From positions 16,529 to 80,528 of the forward strand of contig NZ_FOGL01000011.1 in assembly GCF_900111195.1 (NCBI RefSeq): 64,000 nt of DNA, written 5' to 3'. This DNA is from Gracilibacillus ureilyticus (lineage in GTDB: Bacteria; Bacillota; Bacilli; Bacillales; Amphibacillaceae). The notes below the pieces were generated by a model. It ran no database searches. It had not been told where the DNA came from and saw only the letters and a program-made list of their open reading frames with translations. Position numbers and translations under genes: made by a program. Each line of letters starts with the position of its first letter. Positions within the stretch are counted from its first letter, which is position 1. This document shows, piece after piece, positions 11,183-58,530 of this stretch.

Positions 11183-12025
11183 TTGAAGAAAATAGCTTGG
11201 ATTACAGACAGCTCTTCGGGTCTGTCTAAAGAATTCGCAGCAAAAAATAATGTTTTCGTTCTTCCATTGAATGTAATTATTGATGGAAAAACATACCGGG
11301 AAGATGTGGATATAACTAAGGATGAGTTTTATCAATTGCTCCAATCACATGGAAATAATGCAAAAACAAGCCAGCCGGCGTTTGGTGATTTTGTCTCACT
11401 ATACGAAAAACTGAAAGAAGAATATGATGCAGGAATAGCAATACATGCTTCCAGTCAGTTAACAGGAACTTACAGCAGTTCTGTTTCTGCTTCTGAAATG
11501 GCTGACTTTCCTGTTGAAGTGATCGATTCAAAAATCGGAGATTATGCTTTAGGAAAAATGATTCAAAATGGAATCGATATGGTAAACGAAGGAAAGGAAT
11601 ATGATCAGGTTGTAAGTAAGCTGCGTACATTACCGGAACTTGCCCAGATGTATTTAATGCCGCAAAACTTTGAGCAATTGCGAAAAAGCGGCCGGGTAAG
11701 TACTGCCCAGTCCATCTTTGCATCACTGTTAAATATTCATTTAATATTGGGATTTGATGACGGCAAAGTAGTCGTTAAAGATAAAGTGAGAATAAAGAAA
11801 AGAGCCAAACAGAAAATGTTTCAAATACTGGATGATGCCATGGAAAAATACCATTTAAAAGAATTGTGTATTCAGCATGCTGGAGTAAAGGAGCACGCCA
11901 TGCAATGGAAGGAAGAAATTGAAAGAAAACACCAGTCATTAAAAGTTAAAATCCAGACATTAGTCCCCGTTGCAGGAGTTCATACAGGTCATGGTACATT
12001 GTGTATCTCCTGGCTTAGAGATTAA
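11183..12025 (+). CDS. DegV family fatty-acid-binding protein
   Basis: This is a 280-residue DegV-fold protein, likely to present fatty acids to a FakA-type kinase for phospholipid synthesis. Visible features are the N-terminal DSSSGLS loop, HASSQLTGTY and LRKSGRVS, each typical of DegV/FakB proteins. I prefer TTG at 11183, with GAGGTG 8 bp upstream, starting MKKIAWITDSSSGLS; the frame is open back to a GTG at 11159. It is monocistronic, with a terminator downstream. Confidence 0.9.
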   Translation: MKKIAWITDSSSGLSKEFAAKNNVFVLPLNVIIDGKTYREDVDITKDEFYQLLQSHGNNAKTSQPAFGDFVSLYEKLKEEYDAGIAIHASSQLTGTYSSSVSASEMADFPVEVIDSKIGDYALGKMIQNGIDMVNEGKEYDQVVSKLRTLPELAQMYLMPQNFEQLRKSGRVSTAQSIFASLLNIHLILGFDDGKVVVKDKVRIKKRAKQKMFQILDDAMEKYHLKELCIQHAGVKEHAMQWKEEIERKHQSLKVKIQTLVPVAGVHTGHGTLCISWLRD

Positions 12026-23979: not shown

Positions 23980-24059
23980 AACATCTAATCCTCTTTCATT
24001 CATACTATTACATATAAGTATAACAAATATCAGGGAAAAAGCTGTTACGAAATGATATG

Positions 24060-24809
24060 AGGGCGAACATAATGATCGCGTTCCGCATAAAGCACGATTA
24101 TTCGAAAAAAATTAATGCGCATAATATTGATACTGTGCATGAAAGGTGTATTATATGATGTGTGCAAAACCGCCGCTACACCCGATTGCTTCGCTTTCCA
24201 TGGGGGACGGCTTCAGCTAACTTGCTGAAGAAACCCGCTTCATCAAGTGGATCTTCAGCTCGTCCTGTTCCCATAGGAGTCTCCGCAATCGGCCTACGCT
24301 TGAATGTTGCTCTACATTTTTTATGGGATGTTGCAATAAAAGAAACTAAATAAATTCTCATGAACATTTTATAATTGAATGAATGGTTCTTGAGGATTTT
24401 TATTTTAACGTATGTTCACCCAATACAGGATATCAAACATCTTCACCAGGTGATTCAAACAGGTTTTTGTCATAAACATTCTGGAATAACACCAAAGCGG
24501 AGGCCGGCCATGAAGACCTGTGGGAAAGCGAGATCTGAAGATCCACTTCGAAAAGTGTTCTTCTTTGCAAAGTTAGCTGAAGACGAGCCCACGGTAAAGA
24601 AGACACTACGAAAGCGTATTTTGTTTGAGTAGATGTCGCACTTATGAAAGCGAAGTGGTCGGATGGAGCGGCAGTATAGCACATAATAATACCACTTCAC
24701 TGCACATTATCCATATAATGTACAGTGAAATGAACAATTCATATTATTTACAGAATTCACGTCATCGTTCGGATTTTATTATTACTAATATGTTTTTGTC
24801 CCAGACTCT
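24060..24809. repeat. long palindromic repeat element, copy 1
   Basis: This non-coding element fills the gap 23980-24815. Its left flank (GAACATAATGATC, then ATGCGCATAAT) is followed by a left arm (about 24179-24300), a central spacer with terminator-like hairpin (about 24350-24490), a right arm about 24494-24675 that is an imperfect inverted copy of the left arm (both carry GCTGAAGATCCACTT and AAGTTAGCTGAAG on one strand), and a right flank ending TTTTGTCCCAGACTC (24795-24809). The same parts occur at 49917-50740. Short ORFs inside are on both strands of the palindrome and are not supported. No transposase is present. Confidence 0.85.
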
Positions 24810-24815
24810 AAACAA

Positions 24816-25001
24816 TCAATCTTCACTTTCAGCAGGAAACGGTTCATTCTCTTTTGGCAATTTTCTTGTTTGCTCAATTTGCATTCTGCCATGAATCGAG
24901 CTGGTTGTCCCGCCTGCCATCCCTTCATTAATCATACGGTCAACGTCAAGTTCATATTCTGCACGGGCATCTTTTTCTTTGCCTGAAGACGGTTTAGCCA
25001 T
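24816..25001 (-). CDS. small hydrophilic conserved-looking protein
   Basis: This 61-residue charged protein (starting MAKPSSGKEKDARAEYELD) has no membrane segment or cysteine. AAGGAGGG gives a very good start. It is 45 bp downstream of the YheC/D-type gene on the same strand, so it probably belongs to that sporulation-linked unit. I do not recognise it. Repeat copy 1 begins 6 bp beyond its stop codon. Confidence 0.7.
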   Translation of the reverse strand: MAKPSSGKEKDARAEYELDVDRMINEGMAGGTTSSIHGRMQIEQTRKLPKENEPFPAESED

Positions 25002-45957: not shown

Positions 45958-46000
45958 TTACATGTGTAAGCGATAATATCAAATTAAATACTTGATTGAA

Positions 46001-46086
46001 CACTAGGGGAGCCTTTACCGGCTGAGACGAATGTTTTCGGACCCTTTGAACCTGATCTGGTTAACACCAGCGGAGGGAAGTGGTGG
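46001..46086 (+). ncRNA. TPP riboswitch (THI element) aptamer
   Basis: It contains the hallmark blocks GGGGAGCC, GGCTGAGA, GACCCTTTGAACCTGATCTG and GGTTAACACCAGCGGAGGGA in the right order with a closing P1 helix. It binds thiamine pyrophosphate. A terminator hairpin follows before tenI, so the expression platform acts on transcription. Confidence 0.97.
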
Positions 46087-46115
46087 AATAAGTGTATGTT
46101 TACTTAATTCATTCT

Positions 46116-46189: not shown

Positions 46190-46816
46190 ATGAGAGGAAT
46201 TCACCTAATTACTAATGGTATATCGACAAATGAGGATCTAAAGAAACTGGCAAATATCCATAACTACTTTCATTTTATTCACTTGAGAGAAAAGACAAAA
46301 ACAGCTGCTGAGCTGTTAGAGATGGTTGAATTCATCCAAATGCTCGGTGTCCCGTTATCGAAAGTAATTATTAATGACAGGGTGGATATAGCGGTATTGA
46401 AAAAATGTGGTGGAGTTCAACTTGCCTATCACAGCCTACCTGTAACACTTGTAAGAAGCCAGTTTCCTGATTTGAAGATCGGCAAATCCGTTCATACAGT
46501 GAAAGAAGCGATGACAGCAGAAAGTGATGGATCAGATTTTGTTTTATTTGGACATATATACAGAAGCCAATCAAAGCAGGGGTTGCCCCCAAGAGGTATT
46601 TCTGCTTTACATAAATTAGCAAAATCGATTTCTATACCAGTTATTGCTGTTGGCGGCATTAAACCAGATCATGTGGAGGAGGTTCTTGAATCAGGTGCGA
46701 AAGGAATTGCAATGATCTCTGCCATTTGGGAAGCTTCCGTTCCTGAATACATAGCAAAGGAATATTATGACAGGTTCAATCAATGGGAGGAGGAACATCA
46801 TGAACGGTCACTATGA
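46190..46816 (+). CDS. tenI: thiazole tautomerase TenI
   Basis: This 208-residue TIM-barrel protein of the ThiE/TenI family aromatises the thiazole product of ThiG. GIHLITNG at the N-terminus, HLREKTKTA, VIINDRVDIA, LFGHIYRSQSK and PVIAVGGIKPD are typical. Heading the thiO-S-G-F genes points to TenI rather than ThiE. The start at 46190 (M-R-G-I-H) gives family length; an ATG at 46166 is possible and the RBS is weak for both. Overlaps thiO by 17 bp. Confidence 0.88.
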   Translation: MRGIHLITNGISTNEDLKKLANIHNYFHFIHLREKTKTAAELLEMVEFIQMLGVPLSKVIINDRVDIAVLKKCGGVQLAYHSLPVTLVRSQFPDLKIGKSVHTVKEAMTAESDGSDFVLFGHIYRSQSKQGLPPRGISALHKLAKSISIPVIAVGGIKPDHVEEVLESGAKGIAMISAIWEASVPEYIAKEYYDRFNQWEEEHHERSL

Positions 46817-47912
46817 TCAGATTGTGGTTGGAGGTGGAGTGATTGGATGTTCGGTCGCATATCAATTAAGCAAGAGAGGGTACAGAGTACTTCTTATTGA
46901 AGGTGATGCAATAGGCAGCGGAGCATCCAGTGCAGCAGCAGGCATGCTGGGGGCACAGCTTGAGTTTTCTTCAGATAGTATTCTTTTTCAGTTTGCAAGA
47001 GAAAGTCGAGCCCTTTTTCCTGAGTTATCGAAAGAGCTGAAGGAAGTAAGCGGAATAGATACAGGGTTCATTCAAAAAGGAGTTATGAAATTAGCCTCAA
47101 CAGAACAGCAATTGATTAAATTAAGGGAAATCGCAAATTTTCAAAGATCTGCTGGTGAATCAGCTATTATTCTGTCTCAAAAGGCTGTTTCGCTAAAAGA
47201 AAGAGAATTAGCAGGTGATTTTCTGGGTGGTCTTTTTTTACCGGATGATGGCCAGGTATCTGCACCGTTGCTCACCAAAGCCTTTGCCAAAGGAGCTCAG
47301 GAAAATGGAGCAGTATTGTTGGAAAATACTCCAGTTACTGAATTACTAGAACAGAAAAATGGTTTGAATGGTGTGAAAACAACCGATTCTCTTTTTTATT
47401 GTGATCAGCTTGTGATTGCAACAGGAAGTGATTCAAAATGGCTGCCTGTCGATGTGTCAATTACTCCTGTTAAAGGAGAATGTGTCTCTGTCAGACCGGA
47501 TCAGCCATTGATCGAGAGTACCATTTACGCTGATGGTTGTTACCTTGTGCCAAAATTTGATGGTCGAATTATCATAGGAGCTACATCGCTGCCAGGTATG
47601 ACTGATAAAAGAGTGCGGGTGAAAGGTGTACATCATTTGTTGACAAGAGCTCAGCAAATTCTCCCTGCTCTAGAATATGCACAACTGGAGCATTTCTGGG
47701 CAGGAATTCGTCCCCAAACGGCTGATGGGTTTCCTTATATAGGAAAAGTTCCGGGCAAGCAGGGGATATATGCTGCAACAGGCCATTACCGTAATGGCAT
47801 CCTGTTATCACCACTAACCGGTATTATGATGGCGGATTTGCTGGAAGGGAAAGCTGACAAAAAATATGTAACAGGTTTTGCTCTCGATAGAAAAAAACAT
47901 GCATTGGTATGA
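46800..47912 (+). CDS. thiO: glycine oxidase ThiO
   Basis: This 370-residue FAD-dependent enzyme oxidises glycine to iminoglycine for thiazole formation. The FAD site VVGGGVIGCSVAYQLSKRG lies near the N-terminus; GAGSSAAAGML-type (GSGASSAAAGMLG), GECVSVRP and the C-terminal ATGHYRNGILLSP motif complete the DAO fold. The ATG at 46800 has GGGAGGAGG. The start sits inside tenI, so translation is coupled. Confidence 0.94.
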   Translation: MNGHYDQIVVGGGVIGCSVAYQLSKRGYRVLLIEGDAIGSGASSAAAGMLGAQLEFSSDSILFQFARESRALFPELSKELKEVSGIDTGFIQKGVMKLASTEQQLIKLREIANFQRSAGESAIILSQKAVSLKERELAGDFLGGLFLPDDGQVSAPLLTKAFAKGAQENGAVLLENTPVTELLEQKNGLNGVKTTDSLFYCDQLVIATGSDSKWLPVDVSITPVKGECVSVRPDQPLIESTIYADGCYLVPKFDGRIIIGATSLPGMTDKRVRVKGVHHLLTRAQQILPALEYAQLEHFWAGIRPQTADGFPYIGKVPGKQGIYAATGHYRNGILLSPLTGIMMADLLEGKADKKYVTGFALDRKKHALV

Positions 47913-48131: not shown

Positions 48132-48902
48132 ATGTTAAAAATTGGTGATTTTCAATTTCATTCAAGGTTATTGTTAGGTACAGGAAAATACCCGGACTTT
48201 GATGTACAGAAGCAGGCAGTAGAGGTGTCAGAGACGGAGGTATTAACATTTGCTGTTAGAAGAATGAATATATTTGATCCGGTGCAGCCAAATTTTCTGG
48301 AAAAAATTGATCTGCAGAAATACCGCTTTCTTCCAAATACTGCAGGTGCGAAAAATGCGGAAGAAGCTGTCCGTATTGCTAAGTTAGCAGATGCATCAGG
48401 CTTGTGTGACATGATCAAGGTGGAGGTAATTGGCTGTGATAAAACGCTATTACCAGACCCTGTCGAAACATTAAGAGCTACGGAAATGTTACTGGAAGAA
48501 GGATTCACCGTATTGCCATATACCTCTGATGACGTCGTATTGGCAAGGAAGCTGGAGGAGCTGGGGGCCCATGCAATTATGCCAGGTGCCTCCCCGATTG
48601 GTTCCGGACAGGGAATTATTAATCCATTAAACTTAAAATTTATTATTGAACAGGCAGATGTGCCAGTTATAGTTGATGCAGGAATCGGTTCTCCTTGTGA
48701 TGCTGCCTATGCTATGGAATTAGGGGCAGATGGCGTGCTATTGAATACAGCAGTTTCCGGTGCAAAGGATCCGGTGAAAATGGCAGAAGCGATGAAGCTG
48801 GCAATTGAAGCAGGAAGACTGGGGTATGAAGCTGGACGAATTGGAAGGAAGCAGTATGCTGCAGCAAGCAGTCCTAAGGAAGGGATTAGTGTTGTTGAAT
48901 AA
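48132..48902 (+). CDS. thiG: thiazole synthase ThiG
   Basis: This 256-residue TIM-barrel enzyme combines DXP, iminoglycine and ThiS thiocarboxylate. [55 protein letters not shown] and [20 protein letters not shown] are near-identical to the B. subtilis protein. Two ATGs (48129, 48132) are possible; the second has the better distance to GGAGGAGG. Confidence 0.97.
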
Positions 48903-49914
48903 TCGTTACCATAGACAAATATTATTTGAACCAATCGGAAATAAAGGGCAGGCTAGGGTAGAGAATAGTCATGTGTTGATTATCGGAGTCGGGGCTCTTG
49001 GATCAAGCAGTGCGGAAATGCTTGCAAGGGCAGGGGTAGGGAAATTAACATTAATTGACCGTGATTATGTGGAAGCAAGTAATCTGCAGCGACAGCAACT
49101 GTTTACAGAAAATGATGTGAAACAGAAAACTCCAAAAGCTATTGCAGCGAAACAAAGGCTTAGAGAGGTGAATTCGAGTATTATCATCGAGCCATTAATA
49201 AAAGATGCAGGAGCAGAGGAACTGGAAGAGATTGTTCCGCAAGTTGATCTGATTATTGATGCGACAGATAACTTTGATACACGATTAATCATAAATGATA
49301 TCGCTCAAAAGCATAAAAAACCGTGGATCTATGGAGGATGTGTAGCAAGCTATGGTGTTACTTTTACTGTTATCCCCGGTGTAACGCCATGTTTTCACTG
49401 CTTGCTTGATCATATACCGAACGACGGTGCCACATGTGACACTGTAGGAATCATCAGCCCGACTGTACAAATGGTTGTTGCACACCAAATGACAGAAGCA
49501 CTTAAAATTTTAACTAACCATCCTGAAGCATTATCCGGGAAGTTAATCGGGTTTGATTTATGGAAAAATGAACGGATGGAGATAGAAGTCAGTCGATTGA
49601 AAGATGATCAGTGTCCTTCCTGTGTGAAGGAAGAGTATCCATATTTGGCATTTGACGCACAAATGAAAACAGCCGTTTTGTGTGGAAGAAATACTGTCCA
49701 GATTAGAGCGAAACATCGAGGAGAAATGGATCTGGAGCAATTGGCAGGCCATATTAAACGGAATCCGCAGATCACTTTATTGAAAAACCCTTTCCTTCTT
49801 TCATTCGAACTAGAAAACTACCGGATCGTTATCTTTAAAGATGGCCGTACTTTTATCCATGGTACGAAAGATATCGTGGAGGCGAAAAAGATTTATCATC
49901 AGTATGTAGGATAA
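48892..49914 (+). CDS. thiF: ThiS adenylyltransferase ThiF (ThiF/MoeB/HesA family)
   Basis: A 340-residue E1-like enzyme with nucleotide loop [43 protein letters not shown], and CxxC pairs (CFHCL, CPSC) for zinc. The ThiS partner lies next door. The start is TTG at 48892 or 48895 behind GGAAGGGA; there is no suitable ATG. It overlaps thiG by 11 bp and ends the operon; tenA and thiD are not present. Confidence 0.9.
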
Positions 49915-49916
49915 GA

Positions 49917-50740
49917 GGAGTCTGGGACAAAAGCATATTAGTTATAATAAAATCCGAACGATAAGATGAATTATGTGTATAGAATTCATTCCACAGAACT
50001 CTATTTTCCATTTTTAATACACATAATATGGATAATGTGCAATAATCAGAAGAGAGTAACTTTGAAATATTTAGAGTGAAATACCAGCGCTTCGGCCGAT
50101 TGCTTCGCTTTCACCCAAGGGCATAAGTGCGACATCTACTCAAGCAAAATGCGCTTTCGCAGTGTCTTCTTTACCATGGGGACGGCTTCAGCTAACTTGG
50201 TGAAGAAACCCACTTCACCAAGTGGATCTTCAGCTCGTCCTGTTCCCATAGGAGTCTCCGCAATCGGACTACGCTACCCATGAACATTCTATGCTTGAAT
50301 TGTTCATGGGAATTTTTATTTTAACGTATGTTCACTCAATACAGGATACCCAACATCTTCACTGGGTGATTCAAACAGTTTTTTTGTCACAAATATTGTG
50401 GAATAACACCAAAGCGGAGGTCGGCCACGCAGACTCCTGTGGGACAGCGAGATCTGAAGATCCACTTTGCAAAGTGTTTTTCTTTGCAAAGTTAGCTGAA
50501 GACGAGCCCACGGTAAAGAAGACACTTCGAAAGCGTATTTTGCTTGAGTAGATGTCGCACTTATGCCCTTGGGTGAAAGCGAAGCGATCGGCCGAAGCGC
50601 TGGTATTTCACTCTAAATATTTCAAAGTTACTCACTTCTGGTTATTGCACAGTATCCCTATTATGTGCATCAATTTTTTTCTAATATCCGAGTTTTTTGT
50701 GGAACATGATCGTTATGTCTCATCCTCTATTTTTGTCTGA
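49917..50740. repeat. long palindromic repeat element, copy 2
   Basis: This fills the gap 49915-50837. The left flank starts GTCTGGGACAAAAGCATATT (reverse complement of the right end of copy 1). Left arm about 50005-50280; centre about 50281-50395 with a CCCATGAACA/TGTTCATGGG hairpin and T-rich tail; right arm about 50395-50690, an inverted copy of the left (the 90-bp stretch after 50089 matches with about four mismatches); right flank to about 50740. Copy 2 carries about 60 bp more in its left arm than copy 1. It directly follows thiF, for which no separate terminator is seen. ORFs within it are not credible. Confidence 0.87.
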
Positions 50741-58299: not shown

Positions 58300-58530
58300 A
58301 ACATATTAAAATTCTCATGAAAAATTATTATTCATGAGAATTTTTCATTCATAAGACCTAAAGGTAATATTGGCAGCTTTTTTCAATTATCAGGGGCACT
58401 AAAGCGGAGGCTGGTCATGAAGACTCCTGGGGGGACAGCGAGATTTGAAGATCCTCATTGCAAAGTGGGCGGTCGGAGCAGCGGTATAGCCCCCACCACA
58501 TAATACCCATTATATGTTTGGTTCAGTTCA
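58300..58530 (+). repeat. decayed third copy of the palindromic repeat
   Basis: In the gap 58209-58560, a hairpin (58308-58346) analogous to the central spacer hairpin is followed by AAAGCGGAGGCTGGTCATGA, ACAGCGAGATTTGAAGATCC and GGTCGGAGCAGCGGTATAGC. These match the right arm of copies 1 and 2, with the AAGTTAGCTGAAG part deleted. No left arm is visible. Confidence 0.7.
58308..58346 (+). terminator. probable terminator of hemEHY
   Basis: A 14-bp perfect stem (58308-58321 with 58331-58344) followed by T; 100 bp after hemY and shared with the repeat remnant. Confidence 0.7.

What the first reader, a model, noticed from the sequence alone, without database searches (positions are those of the whole stretch)
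24060..24809. Giant palindromic repeat whose core is flipped relative to its flanks between two copies
Copies at 24060-24809 and 49917-50740 share flanks, arms and spacer. The flanks are in opposite orientation (right end of copy 1, ATCGTTCGGATTTTATTAT to TTTTGTCCCAGACTC, is the reverse complement of the left end of copy 2; the left flank of copy 1 matches the right flank of copy 2 inverted). The spacers (GATTTTTATTTTAACGTATG or AATTTTTATTTTAACGTATG, then CAATACAGGATA) read in the same direction. One core must have inverted between its long arms. The element could be an invertible, terminator-bearing cassette, or a mobile non-autonomous element prone to inversion. It carries no ORF that is conserved.
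Basis: seen in the sequence. Interest (0 to 1): 0.78.

Follow-up and report, generated by a model that had tools for sequence, protein, structure and literature searches.

The report
Modular palindromic repeats at gene ends
Two copies of a large non-coding hairpin repeat, part of a family scattered at the ends of genes in salt-loving bacilli, carry the same middle piece in opposite directions, probably because middle pieces are swapped between copies of what may be a transcription stop signal.

Summary
Copy 1 (24059-24808) and copy 2 (49918-50727) have ends in opposite orientation but cores in the same orientation. They belong to a dispersed modular palindromic repeat family in a Gracilibacillus genome (67 match pieces), with matches in 16 of 16 other genomes of the genus searched. 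In this genome, of 8 copies that can be assigned, the interior lies one way in 4 and the other way in 4.

Elements sit at gene ends: 11 convergent, 7 codirectional, 0 divergent sites of 18. At 6 of 14 sister-species sites without a matching element, a short terminator hairpin is there instead (by eye). Apical hairpins covary.

Between two sister species, 15 sites filled in both gave 9 same, 4 inverted, 2 unclear. Only 3 of 15 interiors are reciprocal best matches; none of these is inverted. This favours exchange of interiors between copies, in either direction, over a flip switch; inversion in place is not excluded. No conserved ORF was found in the core.

Verdict: new variant of a known kind (large modular intergenic palindromes). 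Termination and the recombination route are inferred.

The parts
24059..24165 (+). copy 1, L end (GAG-start)
24116..24139 (.). copy 1, left border palindrome with 6-base centre
24194..24300 (+). copy 1, inner hairpin alpha (direct repeat of 50169-50275, 93%)
24366..24485 (+). copy 1, core, including the end of a central hairpin followed by a T run
24486..24670 (+). copy 1, beta arm (24517-24646 is a direct repeat of 50436-50565, 95%)
24701..24724 (.). copy 1, right border palindrome (inverted to the left one)
24691..24808 (+). copy 1, R end (ends GTCCCAGACTC), 7 bases from the stop codon of a small ORF on the - strand (24816-25001, read by eye)
49918..50041 (-). copy 2, R end (inverted relative to copy 1), starts 4 bases after the stop codon of the ThiF-like gene 48805-49914
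50018..50041 (.). copy 2, left border palindrome
50014..50246 (+). copy 2, left long arm (outer alpha arm, gamma segment about 50113-50175, part of inner alpha)
   Evidence: gamma limits read by eye
50169..50275 (+). copy 2, inner hairpin alpha
50296..50402 (+). copy 2, core, same orientation as in copy 1
50441..50673 (-). copy 2, right long arm (part of the beta arm 50403-50599, gamma about 50512-50574, outer alpha arm)
50646..50669 (.). copy 2, right border palindrome
50646..50727 (-). copy 2, L end (inverted relative to copy 1)
58397..58467 (+). third, fragmentary piece of the family in the window (71 bp, 82% to copy 1)
   Evidence: G000:C24:74925-74995

Best explanation
These are two members of a dispersed, non-coding, modular palindromic repeat family of halophilic Bacillaceae, here in a Gracilibacillus. 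Each full element is a set of nested hairpins: two outer ends that can pair with each other (GAGnSTGGGACA / TGTCCCAGACTC), border palindromes, outer arms, two unlike inner hairpins (alpha and beta) and an asymmetric core. Elements sit at the 3' ends of genes, where relatives often have an ordinary intrinsic terminator, and most likely act as two-way transcription terminators. The interior (arm-core-arm) is exchanged between dispersed copies by recombination through the palindromic arms or their border repeats. Because the arms are nearly palindromic, an exchanged interior can land in either direction, which uncouples core and ends. Shown: family, modularity, both orientations, gene-end location, differing interiors at orthologous sites, hairpin covariation. 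Inferred: termination, the recombination route, and that copies 1 and 2 differ by exchange rather than by inversion in place.
For: Both orientations in the own genome, 4 and 4 of 8 assignable copies. Gene ends: 11 convergent, 7 codirectional, 0 divergent of 18; G011+G012 blocks 17/26/1 of 44 placed elements against 73/326/90 element-free gaps, Fisher p 0.0003 for convergent and 0.003 for divergent, orthologous sites counted twice. Short terminator hairpin in G012 at 6 of 14 printed sites where G011 has an element (by eye). Sites filled in both sister species: 9 same, 4 inverted, 2 unclear of 15; interiors reciprocal best in only 3 of 15, none inverted; the other 12 are 6 same, 4 inverted, 2 unclear. 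End frame retained while the interior changed: R frame of site 0 and L frame of site 3 rank 1 of 88. Covariation: 8 of 8 apical pairs outside the picking pattern show two-sided changes in 111 distinct 43-mers. Extreme folding.
Against: End frames are not the best match in many sites (of 15 frames that could be scored, 8 ranked first), so some pairs may be separate insertions rather than exchanges. Ranks use 120 elements, a part of those in the two genomes, and concerted evolution could hide true in-place inversions. The terminator scan found 1 and 0 sites, no more than shuffles. At the four inverted sites the core itself is partly unalignable (site 8) or missing in G012 (site 19). No transcript or read data.
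Confidence: 0.5

Rival explanations
1. Inversion in place: recombination between the long inverted arms or the inverted border repeats of one element flips its own interior now and then, without a dedicated enzyme.
For: The required inverted repeats exist (233-nt arms at 89% in copy 2). Both orientations occur. At L315/L328 and site 3 nearly the whole interior is inverted between colinear flanks. In the own genome the outer half of the border palindrome tends to go with the end and the inner half with the arm (by eye).
Against: All 3 reciprocal-best pairs, and the one-way best site 6, are uninverted; the inverted pairs have better relatives elsewhere. No close strain was held to see one interior in two directions.
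Confidence: 0.27
2. Repeated insertion: the interior is a MITE-like unit bounded by GTGGTAATTTTGAAATG repeats that inserts, in either direction, into terminator hairpins or older elements at gene ends.
For: The 17-base repeat lies inverted at the interior edges of many G011/G012 elements and next to more than one kind of outer sequence. Sites empty in one species and filled in the other exist.
Against: No target duplication is evident by eye. No autonomous element was found; only one transposase family (Y1_Tnp) was searched, with 2 genes and no module beside them.
Confidence: 0.18
3. A programmed invertible switch that turns neighbouring genes on and off.
For: Asymmetric interior between inverted repeats in both directions.
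Against: Location at gene 3' ends, 0 of 18 between divergent genes. Promoter-like sites no more than in shuffles (4 against 3.5, 2 against 2.8). The 3 reciprocal-best orthologous copies are unflipped.
Confidence: 0.03

Closest known systems
EFAR repeats of enterococci (De Gregorio and colleagues; content recalled; the paper is not held; seen only as a citation in PMC3733652)
   Same: Large modular palindromes of variable length, at gene ends near stop codons, thought to act as two-way terminators (recalled).
   Different: No sequence comparison with EFAR was made. Interiors that differ in identity and direction at orthologous sites are the new aspect here; whether EFAR does this I do not recall.
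MITE-like and terminator-like repeats of streptococci and bacilli (BOX, RUP, SPRITE, bcr1; passages in PMC10969869, and PMC3733652)
   Same: Short non-coding repeats in intergenic regions with stem-loops; clusters with elements inside one another are reported for BOX, RUP and SPRITE.
   Different: These elements reach about 800 bp, have nested arms and an asymmetric core; no cognate transposase or target duplication was found.
REP/BIME elements with RAYT transposases (PMC3733652 abstract start and passages)
   Same: Two unlike hairpins facing each other across a linker, outside coding sequence (BIME anatomy recalled).
   Different: REPs are 20-40 bp (abstract); hairpins here are about 100 bp or more, and the two Y1 transposase genes of this genome have no such module beside them.
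Stem-loop families of Bacillus and other Firmicutes such as Bhal-1 and Efa-1 (PMC2267715 passages)
   Same: Repeated intergenic stem-loop sequences in low-GC Gram-positive bacteria.
   Different: Listed sizes of these two are 74 and 163 bp; their sequences were not compared.

Membership tests
EFAR-like large modular palindromes (defining features recalled) | modular palindromes of varying length made of interchangeable hairpins | tested here: met
   module map, long and short forms
EFAR-like large modular palindromes (defining features recalled) | location next to stop codons | tested here: met
   23 of 29 stop-side gaps are 25 bases or less (counted; element edges partly set by eye)
EFAR-like large modular palindromes (defining features recalled) | termination of transcription from both sides | not testable with these tools
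   no transcript data; scan inconclusive
EFAR-like large modular palindromes (defining features recalled) | sequence homology to EFAR | not tested
   no EFAR sequence was fetched
MITE | no coding capacity | tested here: met
   longest shared frame interrupted in 3 of 6 copies
MITE | terminal inverted repeats | tested here: inconclusive
   imperfect ends in the own genome; 17-base inverted repeat at interior edges in G011/G012
MITE | target site duplication | tested here: inconclusive
   none evident by eye at the printed empty/filled sites
MITE | cognate transposase with the same ends | tested here: inconclusive
   only PF01797 searched: 2 genes, no module nearby
REP/BIME mobilised by RAYT | Y1 (RAYT-type) transposase flanked by the repeats | tested here: not met
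   2 Y1_Tnp loci of the own genome carry no significant match to the element (best E 0.09)
Programmed DNA inversion switch | promoter inside the invertible segment | tested here: inconclusive
   promoter-like sites at shuffle level
Programmed DNA inversion switch | both orientations in one population | not testable with these tools
   no reads
Programmed DNA inversion switch | cognate recombinase gene beside the element | not tested
   only 9 neighbouring proteins were given to one library; none of those was named a recombinase in the rows shown
Xer/dif-type recombination site | two 11-base arms around a 6-base centre, alike to the host dif | tested here: inconclusive
   arm-centre-arm anatomy at both borders; an idealised form agrees with the dif-like site of this genome (3 mismatches to the typed pattern) at 16 of 22 arm positions counted by eye, other forms and G011 sites less
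Known Rfam RNA family | match at the curated threshold | tested here: not met
   only a TPP riboswitch elsewhere in the window

The most novel reading that the evidence does not exclude
The interior is a site-specific recombination cassette: the two inverted border palindromes (arms around a 6-base centre of the type TAnGGA that points inward at both ends) are dif-like sites, and a Xer-type recombinase flips non-coding terminator cassettes and trades them between gene ends, a chromosomal counterpart of plasmid pdif modules (recalled).
Probability: 0.06. Interest if true: 0.8.

Novelty: new variant of a known kind. Interest (0 to 1): 0.4.

Why it matters
If right, gene ends in these bacteria are refitted with interchangeable hairpin cassettes: the same site carries different, and differently directed, interiors in sister species. 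That is a natural test case for how long palindromes persist, recombine and take over the terminator role, and a caution against reading a flipped repeat core as a phase switch.

Tried and rejected
A conserved small protein in the core was rejected: the 85/86-aa frame is open in 3 and interrupted in 3 of 6 copies. A known RNA family was rejected. A phage or plasmid origin is not supported: no match in the phage collection, one partial match (12% of the query) in the plasmid collection, in Radiobacillus kanasensis. A link to Y1/RAYT transposases is not supported. The dif idea is kept only as the novel case. A second species pair, G009/G014, gave too few filled sites to count; at one site the left frame is shared, the left part of the interior aligns forward and the right part matches better in reverse. 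Literature: searches listed no paper on this family in Gracilibacillus or its relatives; only open-licence papers are held and long lists were seen in part, so absence from print is not shown. Corrections to my notes: the '17 of 20 family' is a miscount (15 of 20); note 1 counted L036 as orientation B in brackets, and it is left out here because its two ends look alike.

Full report
What was checked. The two copies were read and compared. The end regions 24736-24808 and 49918-49990 are inverted relative to each other (73 nt, 84% complementary), while inner arms and core are direct repeats (107 nt 93%, 130 nt 95%, 89 nt 89%). A module search confirmed this and showed the other end inverted too.

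Family. Copy 1 as query gave 67 match pieces in its own genome (40 of 57 candidates scored). I took 27 stretches and mapped modules on them. Eight have an assignable end and interior: L031 (copy 1), L033, L041 and L044 lie one way; L032 (copy 2), L042, L043 and L045 the other way. L044 and L045 are assigned by the alpha arm, not the core. Four short forms without core (L034, L035, L039, L040) and 15 loci without an assignable end or interior are left out of this 4:4 count. With L033 as query, matches occur in 16 of 16 other genomes of the genus, 15 of 20 of other genera in the family and 1 of 24 of other families in the order (at most 8 candidates scored per genome). The genus is Gracilibacillus: contigs G007:C12, G004:C16, G011:C8 and G011:C12 have the lengths of named Gracilibacillus contigs.

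Anatomy, read by eye. From outside in: an L or R end; a 24-base border palindrome with a 6-base centre, inverted at the two sides; outer arms; an optional gamma segment; inner hairpins alpha (CCGATTGC...) and beta (CCGGCCAC...); and a core with a central hairpin and a T run. L and R ends can pair at GAGnSTGGGACA / TGTCCCAGACTC. The long arms of copy 2 are 233 nt at 89%, those of copy 1 about 68% alike. Copy 2 folds at -452 kcal/mol (z -33), copy 1 at -251.5 (z -10). Of 241 distinct apical hairpins in the loci held, the 111 of length 43 were counted: each of 11 pairs is kept in 99 to 111 sequences, and all 8 pairs outside the stretch used for picking show two-sided changes. The other 130 were not counted, and related copies are not independent.

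Place. Of 18 copies in the own genome, 11 lie between convergent genes, 7 between codirectional genes and none between divergent genes; 23 of 29 stop-side gaps are 25 bases or less (counted; simple ORF calling, element edges partly by eye, 9 fragment loci left out). In the G011 and G012 blocks, 44 of 46 elements could be placed: 17 convergent, 26 codirectional, 1 divergent, against 73, 326 and 90 for gaps without an element. Upstream of the regulator next to copy 1, 8 of the 10 relatives' loci printed on the right strand show a hairpin with a T run (by eye), and G005 also has an end remnant. After thiF, next to copy 2, 4 of 5 do, and G010 also has an arm remnant (by eye); the remaining loci in these two calls were printed on the other strand and not used. 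Of 14 printed sites where G011 has an element and G012 has none or something else, 6 (sites 1, 5, 16, 21, 22, 24) show a short terminator hairpin in G012 at the same spot (by eye). The consensus scan gave 1 and 0 terminator-like sites in the two copies, at shuffle level, so termination remains an inference.

Orientation at orthologous sites. From 80 fetched stretches (compared) and two 400-kb syntenic stretches (26 and 20 elements), 15 sites filled in both were compared; one more candidate, site 14, gave no alignment and was dropped. Whole-interior alignment gave 9 same, 4 inverted (3, 8, 19, L315/L328) and 2 unclear (2, 23). Two of the 'same' calls, 9 and 11, rest on short or poorly matching G012 pieces. 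Window profiles show inversion over nearly the whole interior at sites 3, 8 and L315/L328, with colinear flanks; part of the core does not align at site 8, and at site 19 G012 lacks the core, so only arms are inverted.

Inversion in place or exchange. Among 120 elements (61 and 59), only L277/L317, L285/L339 and L298/L341 are reciprocal best matches, and all three are uninverted. The other 12 pairs are 6 same (0, 6, 9, 11, 13, 25), 4 inverted and 2 unclear; site 6 is best in one direction only. All four inverted sites hold interiors with better relatives elsewhere. A near-even split is what random direction on exchange would give, though 6 against 4 is a small sample. End frames were compared separately: of 15 that could be scored, 8 ranked first among 88, including the R frame of site 0 and the L frame of site 3, whose interiors changed; 7 did not rank first. 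I therefore prefer exchange, or re-insertion, in either direction, with inversion in place as the main rival. For the own genome no close relative was held, so the history of copies 1 and 2 is inferred by analogy.

Known kinds. The element resembles the large modular palindromes called EFAR in enterococci (recalled; seen only as a citation), and terminator-like or MITE-like repeats (passages) and stem-loop families (passages). The literature searches are named in Tried and rejected. I file it as a new variant of a known kind and claim no homology to EFAR. The boldest reading left open is a Xer-type cassette at the border palindromes: the best match of a typed dif pattern in this genome is one site with 3 mismatches, and an idealised border palindrome agrees with it at 16 of 22 arm positions by eye, but other own-genome forms and the G011 borders agree less.

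Noticed in passing
45995-46095: TPP riboswitch (74.7 bits, gathering 54.3) before genes that include a ThiO-like (46767-47912) and a ThiF-like (48805-49914) gene; copy 2 follows the latter.
   Followed up: no
58397-58467: A further small fragment of the repeat family in the window (82% to copy 1).
   Followed up: no
L397, about 2070-2350: Beside a Y1_Tnp (IS200-type) gene of the own genome, near-identical units of about 50 bases (GATCAGGACGAAA...) stand in tandem.
   Followed up: no
L315, about 2380-2540: A small insertion bounded by GGCCACTGAAAAAC and its reverse complement sits inside one arm of an element: another MITE-like sequence.
   Followed up: no
L081, about 1450-1730: In a genome of another family the same kind of inner hairpin lies between inverted ends of the type GGCTMTGTTAAA, so the hairpin module may travel in other elements too.
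   Followed up: no
G012:C4 stretch, joined-block positions 11269, 47167, 67858, 85969: The 17-base interior-edge repeat is also found next to a second kind of outer sequence (like CCGGGAAAGCCCACC), so interiors occur in more than one frame.
   Followed up: partly
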